DNA from: Rubrivivax sp.
GTDB lineage: Bacteria > Pseudomonadota > Gammaproteobacteria > Burkholderiales > Burkholderiaceae_C
Direction of reading: 5' to 3'
NCBI GenBank assembly: GCA_022842595.1
Contig: JALHPF010000011.1
Span: forward strand, 62,001-126,000
Length of the DNA stretch: 64,000 nt
In this document: piece after piece, positions 2,263 through 58,798 of the stretch
Layout of the letters: the number at the start of each line of letters is the position of its first letter
Numbering within the stretch: the first letter of the stretch is position 1
The notes under the pieces: model-generated
Databases searched by the model: none
What the model saw: only the letters and a program-made list of their open reading frames with translations
What the model was told of the DNA's origin: nothing
Position numbers and translations under genes: made by a program

Positions 2263-2343
2263 CGGCAATGTCTCCTCTGCCGGCCCGTGCTTTACCGCCT
2301 CTTTGCCGACGGGGCATCTTCTGCCCGCCCCCCTACGGGCATG

Positions 2344-2357
2344 TTGACGCACATCAA
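2344..2357 (-). promoter_or_regulatory. FNR-type site upstream of frdC
   Basis: TTGAC-gcac-ATCAA on the + strand (TTGAT-gtgc-GTCAA read toward frdC): one mismatch to the FNR consensus. A -10-like GAAGAT on the minus strand (2316-2321) has its centre 32 bp from the site centre, the class II activator distance. Confidence 0.65.
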
Positions 2358-2440
2358 TTGCCAGCCTGCCCATCGAGTTGCTACAGGGACCCCCGGCGAC
2401 TGGGCGGGTGGCAGCAAGGCGCCCGGTCGCCCGGCCCCGT

Positions 2441-3010
2441 TCAGCCGCGCAGCGGTTCTGCGCTCGACAAGAGCTGGCGCGCGTCAAGCCCCTCTTCGAT
2501 CACGAGCAGCGTCTCGTCGTTGATGCTTCCCTTCGCCTGCAGCCGGTGCAGGCATTCGCGCTCGGCCTGGATGCCGGCCAGCCGCAGCCGGCGTGCCGCG
2601 GCAATGCGTTGGGCCTTGGCCTCGGCAGTGGCCGGGTCGGCCTCGCGCAGGGTGACTTTGCCCTCGTAACGGTGCATCAGTTGTTCGGCAAAGGCACGGG
2701 TGCATTCGCTGGCGGCCTGGGTCGCCAGCGGGGCGATGGCAGCCATGCCGGCGCGTGCCAGATCGGCACGGGCCTGGTTCTCTTCAGGCGGGCCCGCCGC
2801 CTCGCTGCTGGCGTGCAGCTAGTTTTCCCCGGGGCCCGGCCCAAGCCCAGTGCAGGCGAAAACGGTCAGCCGGCCCAGCCCAGGCAGGAAGGTCGCGGCC
2901 ACGCCCGTCACGACCAGGAGGATCGGCATGCCCATGTGGGTCCATCGCACGAAAGCCCCACCCACGACAACGATCAGCAGCAACACCAGGGCGACCTCGA
3001 CGGTATGCAT
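2441..3010 (-). pseudogene. Remnant of a CPA1-type Na+/H+ antiporter gene
   Basis: Two pieces of one reading frame remain. From ATG 3010 the frame gives about 45-60 residues of a hydrophobic N-terminus (MHTVEVALVLLL..., then a second segment ending LPGLG) like the first membrane helices of CPA1 antiporters. It hits a TAG at 2819-2821. The same frame then continues to 2441 with ~125 residues resembling the soluble C-terminal tail of these transporters (RYEGKVTL..., INDETLLVIEEGLD). The intervening ten or so helices, roughly 1.1 kb, are missing. The gene therefore looks like an internal deletion with a stop at the junction. The C-terminal piece could still be translated from ATG 2746, but would have no transport role. 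Family assignment comes from memory of the sequence pattern. Confidence 0.7.
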
Positions 3011-3066
3011 GGGCGGGCACTCGGCTATGGCGCGGCGCAGCATCGGTGGTTGCCCTGCGCCCAGGC

Positions 3067-3108
3067 TTGATGCAGGTCATGTCCGCCCCTGTTCGCGCTT
3101 CTTAGCAT
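3067..3108 (+). promoter_or_regulatory. FNR-type promoter of the por operon
   Basis: TTGAT-gcag-GTCAT at 3067-3080 (two mismatches in the right half) and a -10-like TAGCAT at 3103-3108, centre to centre 32 bp. The predicted transcript would start near 3115, just ahead of porC at 3141. Confidence 0.65.
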
Positions 3109-3140
3109 CCAGGCTCACGCGCACAGCGAGGGGGGCGGCG

Positions 3141-3731
3141 ATGCTGCAGATTCGGATTCACGGTCGTGGCGGTCAGGGCGTGGTCACGGCCACGGAACTG
3201 CTGTCGGTGGCGGCCTTCGAGCAAGGCCGGCATGCACAGGCTTTCCCCAGCTTCGGCTCGGAACGCACGGGCGCGCCGGTGGTGGCCTTCTGCCGCATCA
3301 GCGACCACGAGATCCGGCTGCGCGAGCCCATCCTGGCACCCGACGTGCTGATCATCCAGGACCCCACCCTGCTGCACCAGGTCGACGTCTTCCAGGGCCT
3401 GAAGCCCGACGGCTACGTGCTCATCAACAGCAAGCGCAGCTTCGATGAGCTGGGCCTGGCCGACGTGGCCAGCCGCTTTCGCCACGAGCGGCTGACCACC
3501 GTGCCGGCCACCGAGATCGCGCTCAAGCATCTGGGCCGGCCGCTTCCGAATGCGGTGCTGCTGGGCGGCTTCGCGGCGCTGTCGGGATTGATCTCGCTGG
3601 CCGCGGTGGCGCATGCCATCCACGACAAGTTCAGCGGCAAGGTGGCCGGTGGCAACGTTGCGGCCGCCACCGAAGCCCATGACTTCGTGACCCGCGAGAT
3701 GCAGGAGTTGAGCCATGCTCAAGCAGATTGA
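3141..3731 (+). CDS. porC: Pyruvate:ferredoxin oxidoreductase gamma subunit
   Basis: Gamma subunit (196 residues) of a multi-subunit 2-oxoacid:ferredoxin oxidoreductase, which converts pyruvate and CoA to acetyl-CoA, CO2 and reduced ferredoxin. The N-terminal IRIHGRGGQGVVTA is the hallmark of the POR/KOR gamma domain, followed by FPSFGSERTGAP. The ATG at 3141 has a purine-rich GGGGGCGG upstream; a long in-frame extension to 2850 carries no homology. The 3' end overlaps porA by 17 bases, so translation is coupled. Pyruvate is preferred as substrate because PorB resembles pyruvate enzymes, but the sequence alone does not exclude another 2-oxoacid. Confidence 0.92.
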   Translation: MLQIRIHGRGGQGVVTATELLSVAAFEQGRHAQAFPSFGSERTGAPVVAFCRISDHEIRLREPILAPDVLIIQDPTLLHQVDVFQGLKPDGYVLINSKRSFDELGLADVASRFRHERLTTVPATEIALKHLGRPLPNAVLLGGFAALSGLISLAAVAHAIHDKFSGKVAGGNVAAATEAHDFVTREMQELSHAQAD

Positions 3732-4968
3732 AGGCTCGCAGGCCGTGGCCCAGGCCGTGGCGCTGTGCCGGCCCGACGTGATCTGTGCCTACCCCATCTC
3801 TCCGCAGACGCACATCGTCGAAGGCCTGGGCGAGCTGGTGAAGGACGGAACGCTGGCCCCCTGCGAGTTCATCAACGTCGAAAGTGAGTTCGCCGCGATG
3901 AGCGTGGGCATAGGCAGCAGTGCCGCAGGCGCGCGCACCTACACCGCCACCGCCAGCCAGGGCCTGCTGTTCATGGCCGAGGCGGTCTACAACGCCTCCG
4001 GCCTGGGCCTGCCCATCGTGATGACGGTGGCGAACCGTGCGATCGGAGCCCCGATCAACATCTGGAACGACCACAGCGACAGCATGAGCCAGCGCGACTG
4101 CGGCTGGATCCAGCTGTTCGCCGAGAGCAACCAGGAAGCGCTGGACCTGCACATCCAGGCCTTCAAGCTGGCCGAAGAACTGTCCATGCCGGTGATGGTG
4201 TGCATGGACGGCTTCATCCTCACCCACGCCTACGAACGCGTGGACATGCCCTCGCAGGCGGATGTCGACGCCTACCTGCCGCCCTACGAACCGCGCCAGG
4301 TGCTGGACCCGGCCGAGCCGGTGTCGATCGGTGCCATGGTCGGCCCCGAGGCTTTCATGGAGGTGCGCTACCTGGCGCACGCCAAACAGTTGCAGGCGCT
4401 GGAGGTCATCCCGCGCATCGCCGACGAATTCCGGCAGCGCTTCGGCCGCGACGCCGGCGGCCTGGTTCGCGGCTACCGCTGTGAAGACGCAGACACCATC
4501 GTGGTGGCGCTGGGCTCCGTGATCGGCACCTTGAAGGACACCATCGACGAGATGCGCGACGAGGGGCAGAAGATCGGCGTGCTGGGCATCCGGTCGTTCC
4601 GCCCCTTCCCGCTGGCGGCCGTGCGCGCTGCGCTGCAGGGTGCCCAGCGTGTGGTGGTGCTGGAAAAGAGCTTCTCGGTCGGCCTGGGCGGGGTGGTCTC
4701 CACCGACGTGCGGCTGGCGCTGTCGGGCCTGCAACTGCACGGCTACACCGTGGTGGCGGGCCTGGGCGGGCGGTCGATCACGCTGGCCTCGCTGAAGCGC
4801 ACGCTGCTCGAGGCCATCGCCGGCACGCTGCAGCCCCTGACCTTCCTGGACCTGGACTGGCGCATCGTCAACCGCCAGCTCGAACGCGAAACCCAGGTGC
4901 GGCGCAGCGGGCCGATTGCCGAGAACCTGCTGCGAGACGTGGGCACCGTCGCATCCAAGGTGAGCTGA
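3715..4968 (+). CDS. porA: Pyruvate:ferredoxin oxidoreductase alpha subunit
   Basis: Alpha subunit, 417 residues, supplying the pyrimidine-binding half of the TPP site and the substrate pocket. Recognisable are the N-terminal CAYPISPQTHI, the ESEFAAMS stretch (Glu conserved in TPP activation), the AS(Q)GLLFMAEA segment and the C-terminal LEKSFSVGLGG region shared by PorA proteins. It overlaps porC and is followed, after an 84-base spacer holding a REP-like element, by porB. Family assignment is firm. Confidence 0.93.
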   Translation: MLKQIEGSQAVAQAVALCRPDVICAYPISPQTHIVEGLGELVKDGTLAPCEFINVESEFAAMSVGIGSSAAGARTYTATASQGLLFMAEAVYNASGLGLPIVMTVANRAIGAPINIWNDHSDSMSQRDCGWIQLFAESNQEALDLHIQAFKLAEELSMPVMVCMDGFILTHAYERVDMPSQADVDAYLPPYEPRQVLDPAEPVSIGAMVGPEAFMEVRYLAHAKQLQALEVIPRIADEFRQRFGRDAGGLVRGYRCEDADTIVVALGSVIGTLKDTIDEMRDEGQKIGVLGIRSFRPFPLAAVRAALQGAQRVVVLEKSFSVGLGGVVSTDVRLALSGLQLHGYTVVAGLGGRSITLASLKRTLLEAIAGTLQPLTFLDLDWRIVNRQLERETQVRRSGPIAENLLRDVGTVASKVS

Positions 4969-4975
4969 AGTCATG

Positions 4976-5048
4976 ACGACCCCCAAGCTCGTTTCACTCG
5001 CTGCCCCCCGAGGGGGCGCGGCCTCCTTTGGGGCGGCCCGGCAGGAGG
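4976..5048. repeat. REP-like GC-rich intergenic element
   Basis: Between porA and porB lies a segment with the core GCTGCCCCCCGAGGGGGC followed by GGCCTCC-TTT-GGGGCGGCC. The CCCCC/GGGGG and GGCC.CC/GG.GGCC arms can fold into two hairpins. From memory, elements of this pattern recur between genes in Burkholderiales genomes such as Comamonadaceae and Rubrivivax relatives. Only this one copy is seen here, so the repeat status rests on that recollection. It interrupts an otherwise tightly coupled operon and could affect the PorA:PorB ratio. Confidence 0.6.
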
Positions 5049-5052
5049 CCAC

Positions 5053-6072
5053 ATGAACGCCCCCCTCAAGTTCTACCAGACCGGCACCTTCACCGTCGGC
5101 AACCGCCTGCTTGCGCCCGAGCAGCGCAGCGTGCAGTCCAGCACCGAGCGCACCAACGCGCTCAACAGCGGCCACCGCGCCTGCCAGGGCTGCGGCGAGG
5201 CACTGGGCGCGCGTTACGCCATCGACGCGGCGATGCGCGCCACGCAGAACCAGCTGATCGCCGTCAACGCCACCGGCTGCCTGGAAGTGTTCAGCACGCC
5301 CTACCCCGAAACTTCCTGGCAGCTGCCCTGGATCCATTCGCTCTTCGGCAACGCGGCGGCCGTGGGCACCGGCGTGGCGGCGGCGCTGAAGATCAAGGCC
5401 ATCAAGGCCGGACTGCCACACAGCCGCACGCGGGTCGTGGCGCAAGGTGGCGACGGCGGCACCACCGACATCGGCTTCGGGTGTCTCAGCGGCATGTTCG
5501 AGCGCAACGACGACGTGCTCTACATCTGCTACGACAACGAGGCCTACATGAACACCGGCGTGCAGCGCAGTTCGGCCACGCCCTTCGCCGCGCGCACCGC
5601 CACCACCATGGCGGTCGGCCCCACACCCGGCGCGGAACGGGGCAAGGGCAAGAACCTGCCGCTCATCGCGATGGCGCACGAGATTCCGTATGTCGCCACG
5701 GCCACGGTGGCCGACCTGCGCGACCTGGAAGCCAAGGTCGAGAAGGCCATGGGCATGCACGGGGCGCGCTACCTGCACATCCTGGTGCCTTGCCCGCTGG
5801 GCTGGGGCTCGGCCAGCTTCGACACGATCAAACTGGCCCGGCTGGCGCGCGAGACCGGCATCTTCCCGGTCTTCGAGGCCGAAAACGGCGAAGTGACGAG
5901 CGTGACGAAGATCCGCCACCGGGTGCCGGTGGACGAGTACCTGAAACCGCAGAAGCGATTCGCGCACCTGTTCGGGCCGAAGGGCCACGCAGACATGCTG
6001 GCGCAGGTCCAGGCCGACGCCGACAGGAACATCCGCCGATTCAAGCTGCTCGACGAAAGCGCCGAGGTCTGA
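5053..6072 (+). CDS. porB: Pyruvate:ferredoxin oxidoreductase beta subunit (TPP-binding)
   Basis: Beta subunit of 339 residues. It carries the GHRACQGCGEALG cluster-binding start, NATGCLEVFSTPYP, the PWIHSLFGNAAAV stretch typical of pyruvate-type beta subunits, and the TPP motif GGDGGTTDIGFG followed by YDNEAYMNTGVQRSS. The ATG at 5053 sits behind AGGAGG. It ends two bases before the GltD-like gene. Reduced ferredoxin made here could be used by the downstream fusion protein. Confidence 0.94.
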   Translation: MNAPLKFYQTGTFTVGNRLLAPEQRSVQSSTERTNALNSGHRACQGCGEALGARYAIDAAMRATQNQLIAVNATGCLEVFSTPYPETSWQLPWIHSLFGNAAAVGTGVAAALKIKAIKAGLPHSRTRVVAQGGDGGTTDIGFGCLSGMFERNDDVLYICYDNEAYMNTGVQRSSATPFAARTATTMAVGPTPGAERGKGKNLPLIAMAHEIPYVATATVADLRDLEAKVEKAMGMHGARYLHILVPCPLGWGSASFDTIKLARLARETGIFPVFEAENGEVTSVTKIRHRVPVDEYLKPQKRFAHLFGPKGHADMLAQVQADADRNIRRFKLLDESAEV

Positions 6073-6074
6073 CC

Positions 6075-7706
6075 ATGCAAAAGCCGTTCGCGATCACGCT
6101 CGACCCTGGCTCTTCGCTGGCCAACAAGACCGGCAGCTGGCGCACCGAGCGGCCGGTCTACATCGACCGCCTGCCGCCCTGCAATGCGCAGTGCCCTGCC
6201 GGCGAAGACATCCAGGGCTGGTTGTTCCACGCCGAGAGCGGCAATTACGAAGCCGCCTGGCGGCACTTGGTGCGCGACAACCCCTTCCCGGCCATCATGG
6301 GCCGCGTCTGCTACCACTCGTGCGAGAGCAAATGCAACCGCGGGCAGATCGACGACCCGGTGGGCATCAACTCGGTCGAGCGTTTCCTGGGCGACGAAGC
6401 CCTCAAGCAGGGCTGGGGCTTCGAACCCACGTCGCGGGAGACCGGCAAGCGGGTCCTGGTGGTCGGCGCCGGGCCGTCGGGCATGTCGGCCGCCTACCAC
6501 CTGCGCCGCCAAGGGCACGCCGTCACCGTGGCCGACGCCGGGCCGGCCATGGGCGGAATGATGCGTTTCGGCATCCCCAAGTACCGCCTGCCGCGCGACG
6601 TGCTCGACGCCGAGATGCAGCGCATCGTCGCCATGGGCGTGACGCTGCAGCTCAACACCAAGGTGGCCGACATCGCGCAGGCCATGCAGGACGGTGGTTT
6701 TGACGCCGCCTTCCTGGCCGTCGGCGCGCACATCGCCAAGCGCGCCTACATCCCGGCCAAGGACAGCTCGCGCATCCTCGACGCGGTGGCCGTGCTGCGG
6801 TCGATGGAAGAAGCCGAACAACCCATGCTCGGCCGGCGCGTGGTGGTCTACGGCGGCGGCAACACCGCCATCGACGTGGCACGCACCGCCAAGCGCCTGG
6901 GCGCGACCGACGCGATCATCGTCTACCGCCGCACGCGCGAGAAGATGCCCGCGCACGACTTCGAGGTCGAAGAAGCGCTGGAAGAAGGCGTGATGGTGAA
7001 GTGGCTGTCGACCATCAAGCAGTCGGGTGATGGCGGCGCGCTGACCATCGAGAAGATGCAGCTCGACGACAAGGGCAACCCGCAACCCACCGGCGAGTTC
7101 GAGACGCTGGAAGCCGATTCGCTGGTGCTGGCACTCGGACAGGACGTGGACCTCTCGCTGCTGGACGGCGTTCCCGGTCTGAGCCTGAAGGACGGCGTGG
7201 TGCAGGTCGACCCGGTCACGATGATGACGGGGCACCCGGGCCTGTTCGCCGGCGGCGACATGGTGCCGGCAGAACGCAACGTGACGGTGGCCATCGGCCA
7301 CGGCAAGAAGGCGGCGCGGCAGATCGACGCCTGGCTGCGTGGCCAGGCGCTGCCGCCTCAAATCAAGCACCCGGTGGCCAGCTTCGACAAGCTCAACACC
7401 TGGTACTACAGCGATGCGCCCAAGACCGTGCGCCCGCAGCTCGAGCTGGCCCGCCGCACCAGCAGCTTCGACGAAGTGCAGGGTGGCCTGTCTTCAGACA
7501 ACGCGCTCTTCGAAGCCCGCCGCTGCCTGAGCTGCGGCAACTGCTTCGAATGCGACAACTGCTACGGCGTATGCCCCGACAACGCCGTCACCAAGCTGGG
7601 CCCGGGCCAGGGCTTCGAGTTCAAGCTCGACTACTGCAAGGGCTGCGGCATCTGCGTGGCCGAGTGCCCCTGTGGCGCCATCGAGATGGTGCCCGAGCAG
7701 GTCTGA
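6075..7706 (+). CDS. GltD-like FAD/NAD(P) oxidoreductase fused to a C-terminal ferredoxin domain
   Basis: 543 residues in three parts. An N-terminal Fe-S helical region has C36, C40, C79, C83 and C87. An FAD domain has VVGAGPSG near residue 133 and an NAD(P) domain has VYGGGNTAIDVA near 260. A C-terminal 2[4Fe-4S] ferredoxin-like module has the motifs CLSCGNCFECDNC and CKGCGICVAEC. It resembles the glutamate synthase small subunit, but no large subunit is near, so its likely job is electron transfer between the PorABC ferredoxin pool and NAD(P). Similar proteins accompany 2-oxoacid:ferredoxin oxidoreductases in some betaproteobacteria. The ATG at 6075 overlaps nothing and lies 2 bases after porB. 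Cofactor preference (NAD or NADP) cannot be read from sequence. Confidence 0.88.
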   Translation: MQKPFAITLDPGSSLANKTGSWRTERPVYIDRLPPCNAQCPAGEDIQGWLFHAESGNYEAAWRHLVRDNPFPAIMGRVCYHSCESKCNRGQIDDPVGINSVERFLGDEALKQGWGFEPTSRETGKRVLVVGAGPSGMSAAYHLRRQGHAVTVADAGPAMGGMMRFGIPKYRLPRDVLDAEMQRIVAMGVTLQLNTKVADIAQAMQDGGFDAAFLAVGAHIAKRAYIPAKDSSRILDAVAVLRSMEEAEQPMLGRRVVVYGGGNTAIDVARTAKRLGATDAIIVYRRTREKMPAHDFEVEEALEEGVMVKWLSTIKQSGDGGALTIEKMQLDDKGNPQPTGEFETLEADSLVLALGQDVDLSLLDGVPGLSLKDGVVQVDPVTMMTGHPGLFAGGDMVPAERNVTVAIGHGKKAARQIDAWLRGQALPPQIKHPVASFDKLNTWYYSDAPKTVRPQLELARRTSSFDEVQGGLSSDNALFEARRCLSCGNCFECDNCYGVCPDNAVTKLGPGQGFEFKLDYCKGCGICVAECPCGAIEMVPEQV

Positions 7707-7812: not shown

Positions 7813-7853
7813 GTGACCTACATCAAGGTCTTGCCGGCCGCGGTGCATAGAGT
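7813..7853 (+). promoter_or_regulatory. FNR-type promoter of the nqr operon
   Basis: GTGAC-ctac-ATCAA at 7813-7826 (perfect right half, two mismatches left) and TAGAGT at 7848-7853 with a centre distance of 31 bp. The same TAGAGT at the same distance occurs before lutA. Confidence 0.6.
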
Positions 7854-7882: not shown

Positions 7883-9247
7883 TTGTTCGAACACCACGTG
7901 AAGCGCGGCCTGGACCTGCCGCTGGCGGGCACGCCCGCCCAGGCGGTGTACGCCACGCCGGCGGTGTCACGCGTCGCCTTGTTGGCCGAGGACTATCCGG
8001 GTCTCAAGCCCAGCTTCCATGTCGAGCCTGGCCAACAGGTGCTCTGTGGCCAGCTGCTGTTCGATGACCGGAAGACCCCTGGCGTGCGCTTCACCGCGCC
8101 GGCCGCAGGCACGGTCGTGGCAATTCACCGGGGCGAGCGCCGCGCCTTCCAGTCGCTCGTGATCGCGTTGGCGGCGGGTGAGCAGGCCGACGCACAGCTG
8201 GGCTTCGACAGCTACAGCGGCCTGGCACCCGACGCGCTGTCGGCAGACGCAGTGCGCGCCCTGCTGCTCGAGTCCGGCCTGTGGACGGCCTTGCGAACGC
8301 GCCCTTTCTCGCGTGTGCCGGCACCCGACAGCCAGCCCTTGGCGCTCTTCGTGACCGCGATGGACACGCGGCCGCATTCGCCGTCACAGGACCTGGTGCT
8401 GGCAGGCCGCGAGGCCGACTTCGAAGCCGGCGTGCTGTGCCTGGCCAAGCTGTGCGCGGGCCACACCCATGTGTGCGTGGCACCCGGCTCGGCGATTCAG
8501 GTGCCCCAGGCCGAACGGGTGCGGCGCGACGTCTTCAGCGGCCCCCACCCCGCGGGCAATGCCGGCACGCACATCCACATGCTGTGCCCCGTCGACCTGA
8601 CACGCACGGTCTGGCACATCGGCTACCAGGACGTGGCCGCGGTGGGCCATCTCTTCAGGACCGGCAGGATCGAGACCCGCCGCGTCATCGCGCTGGCCGG
8701 CCCGAGTGTCAAGCATCCCCGCCTCGTACACACGCGCCTGGGCGCCAGCAGCGACGATCTCGTGCACGAGCAGCTCGACGAGGGCGTGCACCGCGTGGTG
8801 TCGGGCTCGGTGCTGGACGGCCGAATCGCACAGGGCGACATCCTGGGTTACCTTGGCCGCTACCACCAGCAGATCAGCGTGCTGGCCGAAGCGCAGCAGC
8901 GCGAACTCTTCGGCTGGATCATGCCGGGCTTCGACAAGTTCTCGGTCTGGGGCGTGGTCGCCGGCGCCTTCACCGGCCGCCCGCAGGCGCTCACCACCAC
9001 CACCAACGGCGGTGCCCGAGCGATGGTGCCCATCGGGTCCTTCGAGCGTGTGATGCCGCTGGACCTGATGCCCACCTTCCTGCTGCGCGCACTGCTGATG
9101 AAGGACGACGAGCGCGCCGAGGCGCTGGGTGCGCTGGAACTGGACGAAGAAGACCTGTCGCTGTGCACCTTCGTCTGCCCCGGCAAGGCCGAGTACGGCC
9201 CGCTGCTGCGTGCCGCACTCGACCGCATCCAGAAGGAAGCCGCCTGA
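7883..9247 (+). CDS. nqrA: Na+-translocating NADH:quinone reductase subunit A
   Basis: Peripheral subunit A (454 residues) of Na+-NQR, the sodium-pumping NADH dehydrogenase. The N-terminal [10 protein letters not shown] and the following [18 protein letters not shown] region are typical. Start is TTG at 7883 behind AAAAGGAAG; no ATG lies nearby in frame and the length fits the family. It overlaps nqrB by one base. First gene of a complete nqrA-F operon under an FNR-like promoter. Confidence 0.93.
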
Positions 9248-10473: not shown

Positions 10474-11284
10474 AGCTCAGGCACCTGCACGGCCCCGCGA
10501 CCTGAACTCGGTGCGCTACACCGTGTTCTTCGCCACCGTGGTGTGCGTGGTCTGCGCGGCGCTCATCGCGTCAGCCGCCGTTTTGACACGACCTGCCCAG
10601 GTGGCCAACGCCCTGCTCTACAAGGAAAAGAACGTGCTGCTGGCGGCCGGCCTCATCGAGCCCGGCGCCAAGGTCAGCACCGCACAGGTCGAGCAGCTCT
10701 TCAAGCAATCCATCCAGGCGCGCCTGGTCGATCTGGCCACCGGTGAACTGCTGCCCGAAGCGACCGGCGACGCACGTCGCTACGACCAGCGGGGCGCACG
10801 TGACGACCCCGCCACCAGCCGTGTCGCGCCGCCCAACAACGCTGGCGTGCGGCGGCTGCCTCACCAGGGCATCGTCTACCTGATCAGGCAGGGCGAGACC
10901 GTCGACCAGATCGTCATTGCCATCGAAGGCCTGGGCATGTGGGGCACGATGTACGGCTTCATGGCGCTGGCGCCGGACGGCAGCACCATCCGCGGCCTGA
11001 CCTTCTACGACCAGCGCGAGACCCCCGGCCTGGGCGGCGAAGTCGCCAACCCCGGCTGGCTGGCACTTTGGCGCGGCCGCAAGGCCTTCGATGCCAACTG
11101 GGACGTCGGCATCGAGGTCATCAAGGGCCAGGCCGGCCCGCCCCAGACCGCCCCGATGCAGGTCGACGGCCTGTCCGGTTCCACCATCACCAGCAAGGCC
11201 GTCACGTATCTCCTGCGCTTCTGGCTGGGCGATGCAGGGTACGGCAAGTTCCTCAAGAAGTTCCGTGAAGGCGCATCGGCATGA
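10466..11284 (+). CDS. nqrC: Na+-NQR subunit C (covalent FMN)
   Basis: 272 residues: one N-terminal membrane helix (~18-40) and a periplasmic FMN-binding domain. The flavin site reads SGST-ITS with T240 as acceptor; the usual alanine before the threonine is a serine here. GTG start at 10466 inside the end of nqrB; four-base overlap with nqrD. Confidence 0.93.
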
Positions 11285-50235: not shown

Positions 50236-52029
50236 ATGGCCGTCATCGAGACCCAAGGCTTCAAGCTCGACAACAGCGGCAGGCGCATCGTCGTCGACCC
50301 GGTCACCCGCATCGAAGGCCACCTGCGCGTCGAGGTGAACCTGGACGACAAGAACGTCATCCGCAACGCCGTCAGCACCGGCACGATGTGGCGCGGGCTG
50401 GAGGTCATCCTCAAGGGCCGCGACCCGCGCGACGCCTGGGCCTTCGTCGAGCGCATCTGCGGCGTCTGCACCGGCACGCACGCGCTGGTGTCGGTGCGCG
50501 CGGTGGAAGACGCGCTGAAGATCGCCATCCCCGACAACGCCAACGTCATCCGCAACCTGATGCATGCGACCTTGTACGCGCATGACCACCTCGTTCACTT
50601 CTACCACCTGCATGCACTCGACTGGGTGGACGTGGTCAGCGCACTGAGCGCCGACCCGAAGAAGACGAGTGAACTGGCGCAGAGCATCAGCAACTGGCCG
50701 CTGTCCAGCCCCGGCTACTTCCGCGACCTGCAGAACCGGCTGAAGAAGTTCGTCGAGAGCGGCCAGCTCGGCCCCTTCCGCAACGGCTACTGGGGTCATC
50801 CGGCCTACAAGCTGCCGGCCGAGGCCAACCTGATGGCCGTGGCGCACTACCTGGAAGCACTCGACTTCCAGAAGGAGATCGTCAAGATCCAGACCATCTT
50901 CGGCGGCAAGAACCCGCACCCGAACTGGCTGGTGGGCGGCGTGCCTTGCTCGATCAACCTCGAGGCCACCGGGGCCGTGGGCGCGATCAACATGGAACGC
51001 CTGAACATGGTGGCCAAGATCATCGACGACACCATCGCCTTCATCGACAACGTCTACGTGCCCGACCTGCTGGCCATCGCTTCGTTCTACAAGGACTGGG
51101 GCGCCATCGGCGGCGGCATCTCCAGCATGAACCTGATGAGCTACGGTGAGTTCCCCGACATCGCCAACGACCAGGGCGAGAAGAGCCTGCTCATGCCCCG
51201 CGGCGCCATCATCGGCGGTGACCTGAAGACCTTCCACGCGGTCGACCTGAAGGACCCCTCGCACATCCAGGAGTTCGTCAACCACAGCTGGTACAAGTAC
51301 GGCGACGAAACCAAGGGCCTGCACCCCTTCGACGGCGTCACCGAACCCAGCTTCGTGCTGGGTACCGGCACCAAGGGCAAGAAGACCGCCATCGAGCAGA
51401 TCGACGAGAGCGCCAAGTACTCGTGGATCAAGTCGCCGCGCTTCAAGGGCCACGCGATGGAAGTGGGCCCGCTGGCGCGCTACGTCATCGGCTACGCCAA
51501 GGGCATGCCCGAGTTCAAGGAACCCGTGGACATGGTGCTGAAGAAGCTGGACGTGCCCATCACGGCGCTGTTCTCCACGCTGGGCCGCACGGCGGCGCGC
51601 GGGCTCGAGGCCTCGTGGTCGGCGCACAAGATGAAGTACTTCTACAACAAGCTGATGGCCAACCTGAAGGGCGGCAACTTCGCCACCGCCAACATCGACA
51701 GCTGGGAGCCCCGCACCTGGCCGGCCACGGCGCAAGGCGCCGGCTACTGCGAAGCTCCGCGTGGCGCCCTGGGCCACTGGATCAAGATCAAGGACACGAA
51801 GATCGACAACTACCAGTGCGTGGTGCCCACGACCTGGAACGCCGGCCCGCGTGACACCAAGAACCAGATCGGCGCCTACGAAGCCGCGCTGATGAACACG
51901 CCGATGGCCAAGCCCGATGAGCCGCTGGAGATCCTGCGCACCCTCCACAGCTTCGACCCCTGCCTGGCGTGCAGCACGCACGTGATCTCGCCGCAGGGCG
52001 AGGAAATCACCCGCGTCCCGGTGCGCTGA
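50236..52029 (+). CDS. hoxG: [NiFe]-hydrogenase large subunit
   Basis: 597 residues with both NiFe ligand motifs, [10 protein letters not shown] near 74 and DPCLACSTH near the end. The tail after that histidine ([15 protein letters not shown]) is the extension removed by HoxM after nickel insertion. Two bases after hoxK. H2 is oxidised to protons and electrons that pass through HoxK to cytochrome HoxZ. Confidence 0.97.
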
Positions 52030-52046
52030 ACCCGGCGGAGGCGATC

Positions 52047-52736
52047 ATGACCCTGAGCACCCACGACAAGCTGTTTCCGGTCTACGTCTTCGAGGCGCCC
52101 GTGCGCATCTGGCACTGGGTGATGGCCCTGTGCATGGTGGTGCTGGCCGTCACCGGCTACCTCATCGGTTCGCCGCTGCCGTCGGTCGGCGGCGAGGCCA
52201 GCAACCATTTCCTCTTTGGCTACATCCGCTTCGCGCACTTCGCAGCGGCTTACATCTTCGCCGTCATGTTCGTCCTGCGCGTCGTGTGGGCCTTCATGGG
52301 TAACCGCTTTTCGCGCCAGATGTTCATGGTGCCCGTCGACATGTTCACACGTGAGTTCTGGCGCGGCTTCACCAGCCAGGGAAAGCACTACCTGTTCATG
52401 AAGCGCCACGCCGAACCCTGGCAGGGGCACAACCCCATCGCCGCGGCGGCCATGTTCTTCATGTACACCCTGGGCACGGTGTTCATGATCATCACCGGCT
52501 TTGCGCTGTACGGCGAGGGTTTGGGCATGGAGAGCTGGGCCTTCAAGATGTTCTCGTCCTGGGTGCTGCCGTTGCTGGGCTACAGCCAGAACGTGCACAC
52601 GCTGCACCACCTGGGCATGTGGTGGTTGCTGATCTTCACGATGGTGCACATCTACATGGTGTTCCGCGAAGACATCATGACCAACGAGAGCATCATCGGC
52701 GCCATGGTCAACGGCTGGCGGACGGTCAAGAAGTGA
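52047..52736 (+). CDS. hoxZ: Hydrogenase cytochrome b subunit
   Basis: 229-residue dihaem membrane cytochrome with four helices and histidines at the expected places (RIWHWVMAL, RFAHFAAAYIF, TLHHLGMWWLL, VHIYMVFRED). Passes electrons from HoxKG to the quinone pool. ATG 52047 follows GGCGGAGG. Confidence 0.95.
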   Translation: MTLSTHDKLFPVYVFEAPVRIWHWVMALCMVVLAVTGYLIGSPLPSVGGEASNHFLFGYIRFAHFAAAYIFAVMFVLRVVWAFMGNRFSRQMFMVPVDMFTREFWRGFTSQGKHYLFMKRHAEPWQGHNPIAAAAMFFMYTLGTVFMIITGFALYGEGLGMESWAFKMFSSWVLPLLGYSQNVHTLHHLGMWWLLIFTMVHIYMVFREDIMTNESIIGAMVNGWRTVKK

Positions 52737-53404
52737 TGTCGGCCGCAGCAGAGAGCTCTGCGCCGGCCGCCCGCGCTGGCGTGCTGGTTCTGGGCATAGG
52801 CAATGTGCTCTGGGCCGATGAAGGTTTCGGCGTGCGCGCCGTGCAGGCCTTGCACCAGCACTGGCAGATGCCTTCCGAGGTGAGCCTGGTCGACGGCGGC
52901 ACGCAGGGGCTGTACCTGCTGGACGCGGTCTGTGCCGCGGGCAGCGTCATCGTGCTCGACGCCATCGACTTCGCGCTGCCGCCGGGCACGCTGAAGGTCT
53001 TCCGCGACGCCGAGGTCCCGGTGTGGTCCGACACCGTGATGAGCCTGCACCAGGCCTCGTTCCAGGAACTGCTGTCGCTGGCGCGGCTGCGCAACCGCTT
53101 CCCGAGCCGCATCACGCTGATCGGCGTGCAGCCTGCCGTGCTGGACGACCTCGGAGGCAGCCTGAGCCCGCTGGTGCGCGCCCGCGTCGACGAGGCCGTG
53201 GCGCTGGCCGTGAGCGAATTGACCGCTTGGGGCGTGGCCGCCGTGCCACGCACCGCGCCGCCCGAGGACATGCTCAGCGCCGACGCCCTGGACCTGCACC
53301 GCTACGAAGGCGAACGCCCGTCGGCAGCCGACGCCTGCCGCGTCGGCGATGCGCGCTTCCTCAACCAGGTGCACGGCCCGGGCGGCGCGAGGGAGCACGC
53401 CTGA
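52736..53404 (+). CDS. hoxM: Hydrogenase large-subunit maturation endopeptidase
   Basis: 222 residues; HyaD/HybD family. VLGIGNVLWADEGFGVRA carries the first metal-binding Glu, LDAIDFALPPGTLK the Asp, and MSLHQAS the His. It trims the HoxG C-terminus once nickel is bound. Overlaps hoxZ by one base and hoxL by one. C-terminal ~60 residues are longer than E. coli HyaD. Confidence 0.92.
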   Translation: MSAAAESSAPAARAGVLVLGIGNVLWADEGFGVRAVQALHQHWQMPSEVSLVDGGTQGLYLLDAVCAAGSVIVLDAIDFALPPGTLKVFRDAEVPVWSDTVMSLHQASFQELLSLARLRNRFPSRITLIGVQPAVLDDLGGSLSPLVRARVDEAVALAVSELTAWGVAAVPRTAPPEDMLSADALDLHRYEGERPSAADACRVGDARFLNQVHGPGGAREHA

Positions 53405-53724
53405 TGTGCCTGGGCATCCCGATGCAGGTCACCGCCATCGAGCCGCACCACGCCTGGTGCGAAGTCGACGGCCAGCGCGAACGCCTGGACATGGCACTCG
53501 TCGGCCCACAGGCCCTGGGCACCTGGGTGCTGGCCTTTCAAGGAACGGCGCGCCAGGTGATGGGTGACGAAGAAGCGGCGATGGCCCGCGCCGCGCGCCG
53601 TGCGCTGGCCGAGGTGCTCGCCGGTGGCAGCGAAGTCGACGCTTTCTTCGCCGACCTCGTCGGGCGCAGCCCGGAATTGCCCGAACACCTCAGACCAGCC
53701 ACCCCGGAGAGGATCACGCCATGA
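53404..53724 (+). CDS. hoxL: HypC-like chaperone HoxL/HupF
   Basis: 106 residues starting MCLGIPMQV, with Cys2 as in HypC, and a longer C-terminus ending in a conserved-looking LAEVLAGGSEVDAFFADL. Dedicated to HoxG cofactor transfer in O2-tolerant systems. Confidence 0.9.
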   Translation: MCLGIPMQVTAIEPHHAWCEVDGQRERLDMALVGPQALGTWVLAFQGTARQVMGDEEAAMARAARRALAEVLAGGSEVDAFFADLVGRSPELPEHLRPATPERITP

Positions 53725-53779
53725 GCCGCCCGGCCGTTCCAAAGGCGAATTCCGCAGTGCGAAGCACGGAGGTTTCCTG

Positions 53780-54250
53780 ATGAGCCAGACCACCCTGCAA
53801 GCACCTGCCGTCGAACTGCACCCCCTGCTGTCACGGCTGGTGAGGGAGACGGGTGCCGCCACGCTGTCGGCAGAGAGCTTCGACGACTGGGCAGGACGGC
53901 CTGGATTGGCGATGGCGGTGTTTGCCGAGGACCCCGAGCGCTTCAAGGAGACGCTGGACCTGGCCGTCGTCGTGCCCGAACTGCACGTCGCCGGCGGACG
54001 GCGCTTCCGCGTCGGCCTGTTGCCGCCTGCAGCCTCGCGTGCGATCGCTCCGCGCTACGGCTTCGCACGCTGGCCGGCCTTCGTGATGCTGCGCGACGGC
54101 CAGTACCTGGGTGCAGTGGACGGCATCCGTGACTGGGACGTCTACACCGCAGAGCTCGTGCGCCTGCTGGCCGCTGCGCCGTCGCGACCGCCCACGGTGG
54201 GCATCCCGGTCAAGGCCGCCGACGCGCCCGACGGACCGGCCTGCCACTGA
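53780..54250 (+). CDS. hoxO: HyaE/HoxO-like hydrogenase accessory protein
   Basis: 156-residue thioredoxin-fold protein lacking active cysteines; ETLDLAVVVPELH and LLPPAASRAIAPRYGF are shared with the second copy at 40238. It acts on the small subunit before Tat export. GGAGG RBS before ATG 53780. Confidence 0.9.
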   Translation: MSQTTLQAPAVELHPLLSRLVRETGAATLSAESFDDWAGRPGLAMAVFAEDPERFKETLDLAVVVPELHVAGGRRFRVGLLPPAASRAIAPRYGFARWPAFVMLRDGQYLGAVDGIRDWDVYTAELVRLLAAAPSRPPTVGIPVKAADAPDGPACH

Positions 54251-54288
54251 GAGCCTCGAAAGACCTGAACCCTCCCGGAGCCCCGCTG

Positions 54289-55158
54289 ATGCAACCCCTC
54301 CACATCCCCATTCGCAACCTGATGCCCGAACCCACGGACGCCGTCGAGTACATGCCCATGCCGCGCGAGATGAGCACCTTCGAGATGCCGCGCCTGCCCG
54401 AACCCGGACCCGACACCGAAGTGGGCGACTTGCTCGTCGCGCGCGACGTGCTCGAAGTCTTCCTGGGCCACATGGCGCGCTGGCTGGCCGAAGGCGGCGA
54501 GCTGCCCGCGCTCGATCTCGTGGGCCTGCCCGCTGGCGCGCTGCGCGTGCTGAACGAAACCCTGGGTGAAGGCGAAGTCAGCGCCATCGTCGAAGCCGGG
54601 CACGAGATTCGTGTGCAGGAGACGGTGTTCTCGGGCGTCTGGCGCGAGCAGCACATCCGCGGCACGCAGCTGCTGCACGACTTCCTGCTCGGCGCACCGA
54701 TTCCGCCGGTGGTGGGTGCGCTGGCGGCAGAACGGGCGTCGACGCGGCTGCGCGGCCTGCCACTGCCGCCGGCCGCGATGAACGTGCCCGCCCTCGTCAA
54801 CGAACTGCAGGACGCCATGGACCGCGCCGGCCCCGACACGCCCGCGCACGTCATCAACCTGACGCTGCTGCCGCTGTCACCCGAAGATGCAGCCCACCTC
54901 GACGCACTGCTCGACGGCGGCTCGGTGGTGGTGCTGTCGCGCGGCTTCGGCAACTGCCGCATCAGCAGCACCGCGGCACGGCATGTCTGGCGCGTGCAGT
55001 ACTTCAACAACATGCAGACGCTCATCCTGAACACCATCGAGGTCATCACCATGCCCGAGGTGGCGCTGGCCGCGCAGGAAGACCTGGCCGAGACCCACGG
55101 CCGCCTGACCGACCTGGTGCAGTGGATGAGCGACTCGGTGAGCCCTGCGGCCGCCTGA
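54289..55158 (+). CDS. hoxQ: HoxQ/HyaF-like small-subunit maturation factor
   Basis: 289 residues of the HupH/HyaF family. YMPMPREMSTFEMPRLPEP at the start and SRGFGNCRISSTAARHVWRVQYFNN near the C-terminus are characteristic. Forms a complex with HoxO and the immature HoxK. Confidence 0.9.
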   Translation: MQPLHIPIRNLMPEPTDAVEYMPMPREMSTFEMPRLPEPGPDTEVGDLLVARDVLEVFLGHMARWLAEGGELPALDLVGLPAGALRVLNETLGEGEVSAIVEAGHEIRVQETVFSGVWREQHIRGTQLLHDFLLGAPIPPVVGALAAERASTRLRGLPLPPAAMNVPALVNELQDAMDRAGPDTPAHVINLTLLPLSPEDAAHLDALLDGGSVVVLSRGFGNCRISSTAARHVWRVQYFNNMQTLILNTIEVITMPEVALAAQEDLAETHGRLTDLVQWMSDSVSPAAA

Positions 55159-55202
55159 CCGGCCTGACCCGCCTGATTCCGCCTGATTCCGGCTCATCCC
55201 GC

Positions 55203-55412
55203 ATGTCTGCGCCCGACCCCGCCAGCCGACAGGCCACGATAGCCGCGCACACGCGCCTGGAGTGCAAGATCTGCTGGACGGTCTACGACCCGGCGCTGGG
55301 CGACGAGGTCTGGCAGATCCCGCCCGGCACGCCCTTCAGCGAACTGCCACCGCACTGGACCTGCCCGAACTGTTCCTGCGAAAAGCAGCACTTCCTCGTC
55401 CTGGATGACTAG
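55203..55412 (+). CDS. hoxR: Rubredoxin-like protein HoxR/HupI
   Basis: 69-residue rubredoxin with both CxxC pairs (CKIC and CPNC). In Ralstonia HoxR is needed to build the [4Fe-3S] cluster under high oxygen. Overlaps hoxT by eight bases. Confidence 0.93.
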   Translation: MSAPDPASRQATIAAHTRLECKICWTVYDPALGDEVWQIPPGTPFSELPPHWTCPNCSCEKQHFLVLDD

Positions 55413-55968
55413 CACCGACGCCCCTGCCGGGCCGCAGCCTCTGCCCTCCCCTGCGGCGGCACTGCAGACGCACTTCGATCACGTCATGCGGCACCAGATG
55501 GCGGGCGTGCCCATGCTGAACCCGGCGCTGCAGGTGCAGGCCCTGGGCTTCCGGCCCTGGGCAGAACACTGGCTGGGTGTGCTGGTGACGCCGTGGTTCA
55601 TGAACCTGGTGCTCTTTCCGCGGCTGCCCGCACACTGGCAGGCCATCGGTGAGCGCGAGAGCCGGCACTATGTCTTCCCGGCCGGCGTGTTCGAGTTCAT
55701 CGGGAGCCGCGACGCCGAACTGGGCGACTACCAGGCGTGCTCGCTGTTTTCGCCGATGTTCGAGTTCGGGGACCACGCCGCCGCCCACGACACGGCGCTG
55801 GCCGCGCTGGCCGCGCTGTTCGACCCCGCATCGCGGCCGGGCAGCGACGCGCCCGCCGCCAACCCCGTCAAGCCCGAGCCAGCCCACGCAGCCGCGGCAG
55901 CCAAGCCTGCGTTGAGCAAGCGCGACTTCCTCTTCGGCGGCAGCGCGCGGGGCCCGCGCGGGCCTTGA
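55405..55968 (+). CDS. hoxT: HoxT/HybE-family hydrogenase assembly chaperone
   Basis: 187 residues; HybE domain (MNPALQVQALGFRPW, LGVLVTPWFMNLVLFP, GVFEFIG-type strand, YQACSLFSPMFEF). The last ~50 residues are Pro/Ala-rich and end in LSKRDFLFGG. Helps HoxK assembly under oxygen. Last recognised gene of the hox operon. Confidence 0.9.
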   Translation: MTSTDAPAGPQPLPSPAAALQTHFDHVMRHQMAGVPMLNPALQVQALGFRPWAEHWLGVLVTPWFMNLVLFPRLPAHWQAIGERESRHYVFPAGVFEFIGSRDAELGDYQACSLFSPMFEFGDHAAAHDTALAALAALFDPASRPGSDAPAANPVKPEPAHAAAAAKPALSKRDFLFGGSARGPRGP

Positions 55969-57378: not shown

Positions 57379-57443
57379 ACTCTGCACAGAAAGTCCGCCT
57401 CCGGGATGATGCAGATCAAGGTCCCCGATCTGATTCAGATCAA
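57379..57443. promoter_or_regulatory. Tandem FNR-type sites between porin and cytochrome c
   Basis: ATGAT-gcag-ATCAA at 57406-57419 and CTGAT-tcag-ATCAA at 57430-57443, each one mismatch, 24 bp apart. Toward the porin, CAGAGT (57379-57384, minus) lies 31 bp from the first site. Toward cytochrome c, AAACAT (57442-57447) lies 32 bp from the first site; the second overlaps that -10 and could repress. Confidence 0.7.
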
Positions 57444-57590
57444 ACATCGACGTGATGGGCCTGCCGTGCTGCTTGTGGCCCCTGAGAATTCGGTACGCTG
57501 GCAGTCGGCCATGTCGGCGCACCGTTTGCGTCGCGCGTTGTCGTTGTTGGCTTGCTGCCACGTACCCTACCTTTTCCCGGAGATGAACCC

Positions 57591-57902
57591 ATGAGACTGC
57601 CCATCGCATTTGCCCTTGTCCTGGCCTGCGCAGCCAGTGCGGGTGTAGCCCAAGCCGCCACGGGTGACGAGGTGATCGCCGCGCAGAAGTGCAACAAGTG
57701 CCATACCGCCAAGACGACGAAGAAGGGTCCGTCCTTTGCGGACGTGGCTGCCAAGTACAAGGGCGACGCCGCCGCCAGCGCAAGCTTGTTCAAGGGCCTG
57801 AAGGCCGGCGGCAAGATGGGCGACGAAGACGACCACAAGAAGCTCGAGGTCTCCGACGACGAGATCCGCGCCGTCGTGGCCGTGGTGCTCGCTTCCAAGT
57901 AA
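57591..57902 (+). CDS. Small class I cytochrome c
   Basis: 103 residues, signal peptide (~1-22), one haem motif CNKCH near residue 34-38. Lysine-rich surface and a methionine in the GGKMGDEDD loop as likely sixth ligand. A soluble periplasmic shuttle between the NapC-like quinol dehydrogenase and MtrA is a natural guess. ATG 57591 follows CCGGAGA; an upstream in-frame ATG at 57552 only adds a non-homologous leader. Confidence 0.88.
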   Translation: MRLPIAFALVLACAASAGVAQAATGDEVIAAQKCNKCHTAKTTKKGPSFADVAAKYKGDAAASASLFKGLKAGGKMGDEDDHKKLEVSDDEIRAVVAVVLASK

Positions 57903-57956
57903 GGAGCCTTTGGCTTCGTGGTTTGCCCCAGTCCCGCGGCACCCGCCCGGCGCTTG

Positions 57957-57998
57957 TTGACGCAGCGCAAGTTGCGAGGCTGAGCGCGACCTTATGGT
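57957..57998 (+). promoter_or_regulatory. Weak FNR-like promoter before the NapC-like gene
   Basis: TTGAC-gcag-CGCAA at 57957-57970 (three mismatches) with TATGGT at 57993-57998, 32 bp centre to centre. Spacing fits; the site is degenerate. Confidence 0.4.
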
Positions 57999-58032
57999 CG
58001 CCCGATCGCCCGACACTTGATGGAGCTTGACG

Positions 58033-58692
58033 ATGGCACCGACCCCGAAGCCCGGCCTGATTCGGCGACTGTTTGGCTGGCTGTTCAGCCCTTCGGCCAA
58101 GTGGTCGGTGTTCGCACTGCTGCTGGCGGGCTTGGTGGCTGGCGCGGTGGGTGTGGTCGGCACGCAGGTCGCGGTGGCCGTCACGGGCACGAATGAGTTC
58201 TGCGGCAACGCGTGCCACTCGCACACCAAGTTCGTCTACCCCGAGTACAAGGCCTCGGTGCACGGCAGCAACCGCACGGGCGTGCAGGCCACCTGCAGCG
58301 ACTGCCACATTCCCCACAGTTATCCGGCCAAGCTCTTCTACAAGGCTGAAGCCGGCATCCGCGATGGCATCGCCGAGATGCAGGGGGCGATCTCGACACA
58401 GGAAAAGTTCGAGGCCAAGCGCTGGGAGATGGCCAACCACGTGTGGGAAGAAATGCGGGCCAACAACTCCGCCAACTGCCGCACCTGCCACACGCCCGAG
58501 GCGATGAGCGCCGAGAAGCAGTCCGAAGATGCCGTGAAGCAGCACAAGAAGTTTGCGTCTGGCAAGGCCACGTGCATCGACTGCCACACCGGCATGGCGC
58601 ACAAGGAACCCGAAGAGCCCAAGGCCGTCAAGCCGGCGGCCGCTGCGTCACCCGATAGCCAAGCCGTTGTGCAAGCGGCCGCCGCGAAGTAG
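58033..58692 (+). CDS. NapC/NirT-type tetrahaem quinol dehydrogenase with CX3CH first haem
   Basis: 219 residues: N-terminal membrane anchor (~24-50) and four haem motifs. The first is C57-G-N-A-C61-H62, a CX3CH spacing; the others are regular (C88-H92, C149-H153, C181-H185). Family members (NapC, CymA) oxidise menaquinol or ubiquinol and hand electrons to periplasmic partners. Next to MtrCAB it would take the CymA place. An Ala/Pro tail follows the last haem. ATG 58033 is chosen over TTG 58027 because of GGAG spacing. Confidence 0.88.
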   Translation: MAPTPKPGLIRRLFGWLFSPSAKWSVFALLLAGLVAGAVGVVGTQVAVAVTGTNEFCGNACHSHTKFVYPEYKASVHGSNRTGVQATCSDCHIPHSYPAKLFYKAEAGIRDGIAEMQGAISTQEKFEAKRWEMANHVWEEMRANNSANCRTCHTPEAMSAEKQSEDAVKQHKKFASGKATCIDCHTGMAHKEPEEPKAVKPAAAASPDSQAVVQAAAAK

Positions 58693-58757
58693 ATTCGTGG
58701 ATGGCCAGCCCCGGCGGCTGGGGCCAACCCTATAGCCCGCAACGGCACGGCCAGCAA

Positions 58758-58798
58758 CTGATCCAGATCAAGTTTTTTCGGCCACCCGCACGGACACT
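58758..58798 (+). promoter_or_regulatory. FNR-type promoter of the mtr operon
   Basis: CTGAT-ccag-ATCAA at 58758-58771 (one mismatch) and GACACT at 58793-58798, centres 31 bp apart, 65 bases before mtrC. Confidence 0.65.

What the first reader, a model, noticed from the sequence alone, without database searches (positions are those of the whole stretch)
2316..58798. One FNR-type control signal links nearly every operon of a 64-kb electron-transfer region
Sites close to TTGAT-N4-ATCAA lie upstream of frd, por, nqr, lut, the SHP cytochrome, the octahaem/EB_dh pair, the cNMP-domain operon, the menaquinone operon, hox/hyp, the porin/cytochrome c pair, napC-like and mtr. At about ten of them a -10-like hexamer (TAGAGT, TAGCAT, TATCGT, GAGACT, GACACT and others) lies 31-32 bp from the site centre, the class II FNR geometry. 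This repeated spacing argues against chance. An fnr gene with all four cluster cysteines is within the region. The window may be a physically clustered FNR regulon that combines hydrogenase, Na+-NQR, lactate use, menaquinone and extracellular electron transfer.
Basis: partly seen in the sequence, partly recalled or inferred. Interest (0 to 1): 0.85.

Follow-up and report, generated by a model that had tools for sequence, protein, structure and literature searches.

The report
Clustered FNR-controlled electron-transfer operons
Ten neighbouring sets of genes for hydrogen use, lactate use and passing electrons out of the cell carry the same predicted low-oxygen "on" switch in front of them, and a gene for a matching oxygen-sensing regulator sits among them.

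Summary
FNR-type sites (TTGAT-N4-ATCAA, up to 2 mismatches) occur in 12 of 30 promoter-side intergenic regions of the window, against 17 of 355 in 40 control stretches of the genome (P about 1e-7). The class II geometry holds without choosing sites by eye: in 11 of 23 site-to-gene directions the best -10-like hexamer lies 21-22 bp past the site; random intergenic positions give mean 1, maximum 6, and sites inside control genes 13 of 290. For the combined pattern this is the genome's densest 64 kb. Sites and geometry recur upstream of several orthologous genes in relatives with other gene orders, unevenly. Best reading: a real cluster of FNR-activated operons, including a class II site at mtrC. 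Caveats: two four-cysteine FNR proteins share near-identical DNA-reading helices, so the regulator is unassigned; some named operons have a site but not the geometry; there are no transcription data. The window's FNR is a rare paralogue, adjacent to genes of this module in all five genomes where it was found at 72% identity or more; whether it is dedicated to the module is open.

The parts
2344..2357 (-). FNR-type site, frd operon; hexamer GAAGAT at 2316-2321 (gap 22)
   Evidence: site TTGACGTGCATCAA with gap-22 CAGCAT before the G018 frd genes
1..2262 (-). fumarate reductase flavoprotein (cut by window edge) and cytochrome b subunit
   Evidence: NCBIfam PRK08626, PRK13553
3067..3080 (+). FNR-type site, por operon; hexamer TAGCAT at 3103-3108 (gap 22)
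3141..7706 (+). 2-oxoacid:acceptor oxidoreductase operon (gamma, alpha, beta, NAD(P)-binding/PorD-like)
   Evidence: NCBIfam
7813..7826 (+). FNR-type site, nqr operon; hexamer TAGAGT at 7848-7853 (gap 21)
   Evidence: class II site in 1 of 7 other nqrA upstreams (L186)
7883..14320 (+). nqrABCDEF and one further gene labelled CBS
   Evidence: NqrA by NCBIfam; the others named by recall from gene order and sequence start
15743..16489 (-). FNR2, four-cysteine FNR-family regulator, recognition helix LKLETVSR
16611..16624 (+). FNR-type site between fnr2 and lut; class II for lut (TAGAGT at 16646-16651, gap 21), not class II for fnr2
16692..19561 (+). lutABC lactate oxidation operon
   Evidence: first gene matches LdhH/GlpC-type families; lut names from recall and gene order
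19651..19664 (+). weak FNR-type site upstream of the TRAP transporter/dld operon; GAGCAT at gap 22 scores low and is not the best hexamer
26450..26463 (-). FNR-type site; class II for the DUF1924 cytochrome (TTCAAT at 26423-26428, gap 21); not for the ccmI-like gene
   Evidence: DUF1924 by Pfam
30979..30992 (.). FNR-type site between octahaem cytochrome and EB_dh genes; no good hexamer at class II distance on either side
34851..34864 (-). FNR-type site, cNMP-domain/FeS operon; hexamer TATCGT at 34824-34829 (gap 21)
   Evidence: recurs in relatives
32229..34778 (-). cNMP-binding protein and CCG/4Fe-4S protein operon (the FeS gene served as marker in relatives)
36364..36377 (+). FNR-type site, menaquinone operon; hexamer TATCGT at 36399-36404 (gap 21)
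36440..40678 (+). UbiE/MenG and MenA genes with TctC, polyketide-cyclase-like (RatA-like, recalled) and HyaE-like genes
48891..48904 (-). FNR-type site on the hyp side; best hexamer TACCGT at gap 24
49022..49035 (+). FNR-type site, hydrogenase operon; hexamer GAGACT at 49057-49062 (gap 21)
   Evidence: GAGACT at gap 21 also in G018, GACACT in G024
49136..55968 (+). Hya-type [NiFe] hydrogenase structural and accessory genes
57406..57419 (-). FNR-type site, porin side (CAGAGT at 57379-57384, gap 21); on the cytochrome c side AAACAT at gap 22 overlaps the second site
   Evidence: class II site also before the G018 porin gene
57430..57443 (+). second, adjacent FNR-type site upstream of cytochrome c; no good hexamer at class II distance
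   Evidence: class II sites before the orthologous cytochrome c in L101, L102, L103
57957..57970 (+). weaker site (3 mismatches) upstream of napC-like gene with TATGGT at gap 22
   Evidence: class II site before napC in L105
58758..58771 (+). FNR-type site, mtrC; hexamer GACACT at 58793-58798 (gap 21)
   Evidence: G018 mtrC has a site with TAGACT at gap 21
58863..64000 (+). MtrC-like decahaem cytochrome, HHH-motif protein, MtrA-like cytochrome, MtrB (cut by window edge)

Best explanation
The window holds a physical cluster of operons activated by an FNR-family regulator at low oxygen. At ten promoters the FNR dimer site sits 21-22 bp upstream of a -10 element and stands in for the -35 region, so FNR would activate by touching RNA polymerase (class II, as in E. 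coli). The operons are frd, por, nqr, lut, the DUF1924 cytochrome, cNMP/FeS, menaquinone, hydrogenase, porin and mtr. When oxygen falls, the [4Fe-4S] form of FNR would switch on together electron sources (H2, lactate, 2-oxoacids), quinone and Na+ steps, and export of electrons through Mtr. Shown here: site enrichment, geometry, recurrence with several of the genes in relatives, and two FNR proteins with cluster cysteines and the DNA-reading residues. Inferred: binding, activation, oxygen dependence, and which FNR acts.
For: Density 12 of 30 vs 17 of 355 intergenic regions. Geometry 11 of 23 vs random mean 0.99, maximum 6 in 2000 draws, and 13 of 290 in-gene control directions. Densest 64 kb of the genome for the combined pattern. 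Relatives, best hexamer at gap 21/22: G018 cluster 5 of 10 directions, G025 5 of 17, G028 6 of 11, G024 C71 1 of 4, G024 C104 2 of 6, L101-L105 9 of 24; together 28 of 72 where about 3 are expected. G018 promoter-side regions with a site: 6 of 16 in the cluster, 5 of 43 elsewhere on the fetched contig. Upstreams of orthologues with a site: FeS gene 7 of 10 (window included) and 3 of 4, hyaA 12 of 24, nqrA 2 of 8, against 0.26, 1.4 and 0.2 on average for the other letter orders (no such control for the 3 of 4). Four cysteines and E..SR helix. In E. coli 19 of 23 directly FNR-activated promoters with known start have the site at -41.5 plus or minus 4 (PMC3688515, passages).
Against: No transcription start is mapped and no binding was measured. 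The -10 matrix was typed from recall. Recurrence is uneven: 12 of 24 hyaA upstreams have no site and 21 of 24 no good hexamer at 21/22; 6 of 7 nqrA upstreams other than the window's have no site; 3 of 10 FeS upstreams (L144, L150, L151) have none within 900 bp and 1 of 4 in the second set (L215); L104 has no class II site. G018 lacks nqr, and por, dld, dct, octahaem and EB_dh matches were not seen in its fetched 180 kb. Outside the G018 cluster 2 of 10 directions also have the best hexamer at 21/22. Octahaem/EB_dh, ccmI-like and fnr2 have a site without the geometry. FNR2 scores 215.4 bits against a curated cut-off of 228 for NCBIfam Fnr. The 40 control stretches left out C11 and C15, which were known to hold sites.
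Confidence: 0.85

Rival explanations
1. The sites are read by the other, housekeeping-like FNR (C1); the resident FNR2 does something else or is redundant. The cluster is then an ordinary part of a genome-wide FNR regulon.
For: FNR1 has the same four cysteines and the near-identical helix LKLETVSRAFSK. Class II sites occur upstream of the FeS marker in G034, G025, G010 and G036, whose best FNR matches are 52-65% identical to FNR2. FNR-type sites also stand upstream of 29 of 33 fnr-family genes.
Against: FNR2 at 72% identity or more occurred in 3 of 355 other sampled genomes and all 3 have the marker gene, which 12 of 355 have (P about 3e-5, not corrected for relatedness). FNR2 adjoins module genes in all 5 genomes where it was found.
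Confidence: 0.4
2. Another Crp/Fnr protein, such as the one at C7:96434-97006 (HETVSR helix, no N-terminal cysteine cluster), reads the sites in response to a signal other than oxygen.
For: It has the E..SR reading residues; the genome has 18 Crp-type HTH matches over the cut-off.
Against: 3 of 4 intergenic sites on the stretch around its gene have a TTGAG half (L070), whereas 12 of 14 window sites are TTGAY-N4-RTCAA at those positions. FNR proteins with an intact cluster motif are present.
Confidence: 0.08
3. The operons are clustered because respiratory genes cluster anyway; each acquired an FNR site on its own, so co-location has no regulatory meaning.
For: Gene order differs in G018, G025 and G028 while sites stay with several genes. 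FNR control of anaerobic respiratory genes is ordinary.
Against: Many of the genes stay within about 50 kb (G018) or 100 kb (G025, G028) of each other despite rearrangement, and fnr2, where present, adjoins them; neither proves selection on co-regulation.
Confidence: 0.55
4. The sites are chance matches.
For: Some chance matches are expected: 17 of 355 control intergenic regions hold one, and whole-genome counting at 2 mismatches gives only 25 of 1207 in the window, P 0.006.
Against: Intergenic density, letter-order, geometry and orthologue tests.
Confidence: 0.01

Closest known systems
E. coli FNR regulon, class II promoters
   Same: Site consensus, distance to -10 (site at about -41.5), four-cysteine regulator, anaerobic respiratory targets (PMC3688515, passages).
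   Different: The targets shown in those passages lie at widely spaced map positions; here ten operons lie within 57 kb and include extracellular electron transfer, Na+-NQR and a Hya-type hydrogenase.
Shewanella oneidensis mtr control by CRP, with Fnr/EtrA as fine tuner
   Same: Mtr-type extracellular electron transfer switched on under anoxia by a Crp/Fnr-family protein.
   Different: In Shewanella CRP binds directly upstream of omcA and mtrC; an fnr deletion lowered omcA-mtrCAB expression but not metal oxide reduction rates significantly, so Fnr is given a minor part (PMC4468914, passages; PMC3078092, abstract). Here mtrC has an FNR-type class II site, also in G018.
Two fnr genes in Sphingopyxis granuli (fnrN, fixK)
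   Same: Two functional FNR-type proteins in one genome (PMC7713065, abstract).
   Different: Whether one of them lies within an electron-transfer module was not looked at; here fnr2 adjoins lut, nqrM/apbE, frd, FeS or dld genes.

Membership tests
E. coli-type FNR regulator (protein 15743-16489) | Crp/Fnr architecture: cNMP-binding-like domain plus Crp HTH | tested here: met
   PF00027, PF13545, PF00325 over cut-offs
E. coli-type FNR regulator (protein 15743-16489) | Four cluster cysteines (three N-terminal, one internal) | tested here: met
   C18, C21, C27, C121, aligned with relatives; extra C14 and C78; equivalence to E. coli positions is recalled
E. coli-type FNR regulator (protein 15743-16489) | Recognition helix with E..SR | tested here: met
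   LKLETVSR; meaning of the residues recalled
E. coli-type FNR regulator (protein 15743-16489) | Passes the NCBIfam Fnr cut-off (NF008365, 228 bits) | tested here: not met
   215.4 bits, best family but 13 bits short. Filed as FNR-family, not as a curated Fnr
E. coli-type FNR regulator (protein 15743-16489) | Oxygen-labile [4Fe-4S] cluster | not testable with these tools
   needs purified protein
FNR class II promoters | Site matching TTGAT-N4-ATCAA in promoter-side intergenic DNA above background | tested here: met
   12 of 30 vs 17 of 355 regions
FNR class II promoters | Site centre 31-32 bp from the -10 centre | tested here: met
   11 of 23 directions (ten operons) at gap 21/22
FNR class II promoters | Transcription start about 41 bp from site centre | not testable with these tools
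   no RNA data
FNR class II promoters | Loss of anaerobic activation without FNR | not testable with these tools
   no mutant data

The most novel reading that the evidence does not exclude
The window is a low-oxygen electron-transfer module that travels with its own FNR paralogue (FNR2), a regulator that diverged from the housekeeping FNR and serves mainly this module: an FNR 'island' with its own oxygen sensor that switches on H2 and lactate oxidation, Na+-NQR, menaquinone and Mtr electron export as one unit.
Probability: 0.3. Interest if true: 0.75.

Novelty: new variant of a known kind. Interest (0 to 1): 0.55.

Why it matters
If right, it gives a testable wiring diagram for oxygen control of extracellular electron transfer in Burkholderiales, on which no title in my search listings was a report (listings only), and one that differs from the CRP-based control of Shewanella. 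It also allows an evolutionary test: sites stay with several genes while gene order is shuffled, and one of two FNR paralogues adjoins the module. It predicts that electron export, hydrogen uptake and lactate use are induced together by low oxygen rather than by the electron acceptor.

Tried and rejected
Chance or composition as the cause: rejected by half-site letter orders, in-gene sites, random positions and shuffles. Exact consensus TTGATNNNNATCAA: one place in the genome, not in the window, so exact matching is uninformative. The plain whole-genome count at 2 mismatches is weak (25 of 1207, P 0.006), since many matches lie in coding sequence. Assigning the regulator by recognition helix: not possible, FNR1 and FNR2 read alike. 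Strict dependence on FNR2: not the only reading, since genomes without a close FNR2 have the sites. Literature searches gave precedents; no listed title describes this cluster; the library is open-access only and most hits were seen as listings. The regulon outside the window was only sampled: genes that look like hemN, a response regulator and a universal stress protein have a site with a hexamer score of 1 or more at gap 21/22; these names are impressions, not searches. Structure prediction was not used, as it would not separate the two FNRs.

Rows dropped before counts: 4 of 14 FeS loci (L152-L155) and 1 of 25 hyaA loci (L174) whose match did not reach the start of the protein. In the co-occurrence count, 5 of the 13 FeS matches among 60 relatives (33-40% identity) were not counted as the marker; one search used a stricter cut-off. 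G062 was left out of that count because it was reached through an electron-transfer gene. Of 17 named loci, L101-L105 were scanned for sites. An earlier figure of 84 distinct whole-genome pattern hits in the script was wrong; it is 81; no number in this report rests on it.
Full report
What was checked. The window is G000:C11:62001-126000 of a 5.46 Mb genome in 75 contigs. The closest relatives of its napC-like gene lie in genomes titled Aquabacterium, Burkholderiales, Pseudomonadota and Rubrivivax. I called genes with a codon-usage script and named key ones by Pfam and NCBIfam; others are named by recall from sequence and order. The region encodes fumarate reductase, a 2-oxoacid oxidoreductase, Na+-NQR, an FNR protein, lut and a TRAP/dld-type operon, cytochromes, a cNMP/FeS operon, MenA and UbiE, a Hya-type hydrogenase with hyp genes, a porin, a NapC-like cytochrome and MtrC, MtrA and MtrB.

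Sites. With the E. coli consensus fixed beforehand, 25 matches with up to 2 mismatches lie in the window and 1207 in the genome; with up to 1 mismatch, 10 and 90. In promoter-side intergenic DNA the window has 14 sites in 4,737 bp (12 of 30 regions) and 40 control stretches have 20 in 68,295 bp (17 of 355 regions); at most 1 mismatch, 9 vs 6 sites. Fisher P is 1.1e-7 and, for 8 of 30 vs 5 of 355, 5e-7. No other letter order of the half-site gives more than 2 sites in the same window DNA. The rest of contig C11 is in between: 4 of 29 regions.

Geometry. For all 23 site-to-gene directions I scored hexamers at each gap from 5 to 49 bp. The mean score peaks at gap 21, then 22. The best hexamer falls at 21 or 22 in 11 of 23; random intergenic positions give mean 0.99 and maximum 6 in 2000 draws, base shuffles mean 0.96 and maximum 6 in 1000; in-gene sites give 1 of 22 in the window and 13 of 290 in controls; control intergenic sites 3 of 30; intergenic sites on the rest of C11 and the C1, C15 and C7 stretches 8 of 23. 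The eleven directions are frd, por and the small gene opposite it, nqr, lut, the DUF1924 cytochrome, cNMP/FeS, menaquinone, hydrogenase, porin and mtrC: ten operons and one doubtful gene. The whole-genome pattern of site plus TANNNT at gap 21 gives 89 hits (81 distinct; 30 with the reversed control), and its densest 64 kb is this window, with 9, one of them pointing away from frd.

Conservation. In G018 many of these genes, with fnr2 among them, lie within about 50 kb in a different order; nqr has no match in that genome, and por, dct, dld, octahaem and EB_dh matches were not seen in the 180 kb fetched. Sites with a hexamer at gap 21/22 stand before its hydrogenase (GAGACT, though a better-scoring hexamer lies at gap 33), cNMP/FeS, frd, mtrC and porin genes. 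Five named loci were scanned: class II sites stand before cytochrome c (L101, L102, L103), the FeS gene (L102) and napC (L105), none in L104. G025 and G028 stretches of 100 kb hold the hydrogenase, FeS, menA and mtr genes; 5 of 17 and 6 of 11 directions have the best hexamer at 21/22. Over all relatives' loci scanned, G018 outside the cluster apart, it is 28 of 72; in G018 outside the cluster 2 of 10. Upstreams with a site: FeS gene 7 of 10 and 3 of 4, hyaA 12 of 24 (3 of 24 with a good hexamer), nqrA 2 of 8 including the window, fnr family 29 of 33. So recurrence is strong for the FeS operon and the closest hydrogenases, and weak for nqr.

Regulators. The genome has 20 Crp-type HTH matches, 18 over the cut-off. 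Read by eye, two of the proteins have the four cluster cysteines: FNR2 in the window and FNR1 on C1, beside a hemN-like gene (named from recall); they are 64% identical and share LKLETVSR. A third, on C7, has HETVSR but no N-terminal cluster. In a tree of 36 rows FNR2 groups with G018, G024, G062 and a long-branch row of G015 at 100/100. FNR2 at 72% identity or more was found in G018 and G024 (of 60 relatives), G267 (of 298 other family genomes) and G062. The FeS marker at 65% identity or more was found in 8 of 60 (five more matches of 33-40% not counted) and in 4 of 298 at a stricter cut-off; three genomes are in both sets. All three counted FNR2 genomes have the marker; the chance is about 3e-5 if genomes were independent, which they are not. 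In G062 and G267 fnr2 again faces lutA, in G062 with nqrM and apbE on its other side as in the window; in G024 it faces dld; in G018 it lies between the FeS and frd genes. Against a strict tie, G034, G025, G010 and G036 have class II sites at the FeS gene without such an FNR2.

Reading. The simplest account is direct activation of ten operons by FNR at low oxygen, by the class II mechanism known from E. coli (PMC3688515, passages). What is new is the make-up and packing of the set and the linked paralogue. In Shewanella CRP binds upstream of omcA and mtrC; fnr deletion lowers omcA-mtrCAB expression but Fnr is given a minor part in the Mtr pathway (PMC4468914, passages; PMC3078092, abstract). 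A genome with two working FNR-type proteins is known (PMC7713065, abstract). My searches listed no title on FNR control of Mtr genes in Burkholderiales, in an open-access library only.

Limits. No transcription or binding data; home-made gene calls; recalled -10 matrix; control stretches at fixed positions without C11 and C15; unnamed and partly incomplete genomes; relatives' stretches chosen because they hold the genes; the co-occurrence test ignores relatedness and used two cut-offs.

Noticed in passing
window 49136-50233: The hydrogenase small subunit has the run ECTCCTES, the extra-cysteine pattern I recall from oxygen-tolerant Hyd-1-type enzymes; HyaE, HupH, rubredoxin and HypX-like (name recalled) genes are in the region. 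An oxygen-tolerant hydrogenase under FNR control would point to use at low rather than zero oxygen.
   Followed up: partly
L070 (G000:C7:90001-110000) at 6068, 11573, 13201: Three of four intergenic sites on the stretch around the third Crp/Fnr gene have a TTGAG half rather than TTGAY, perhaps a different half-site preference.
   Followed up: no
L138 (G000:C1:152500-160800), C1:154116 and C1:159103: The same palindrome TTGACCGCAGTCAA stands at two places about 5 kb apart in opposite orientation, one next to a gene that by eye resembles another Crp/Fnr-type protein.
   Followed up: no
window 57406-57443: Two FNR-type sites 24 bp apart between porin and cytochrome c genes; the -10-like hexamer of one overlaps the other, so one may block the other.
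   Followed up: partly
window 37764-39694: menA is followed by a TctC-type receptor gene; the menA-tctC pair recurs in G018, G028, L102 and L103.
   Followed up: partly
window 2441-3043: Two small predicted genes on the minus strand between frd and por have no Pfam match and may not be real genes.
   Followed up: no
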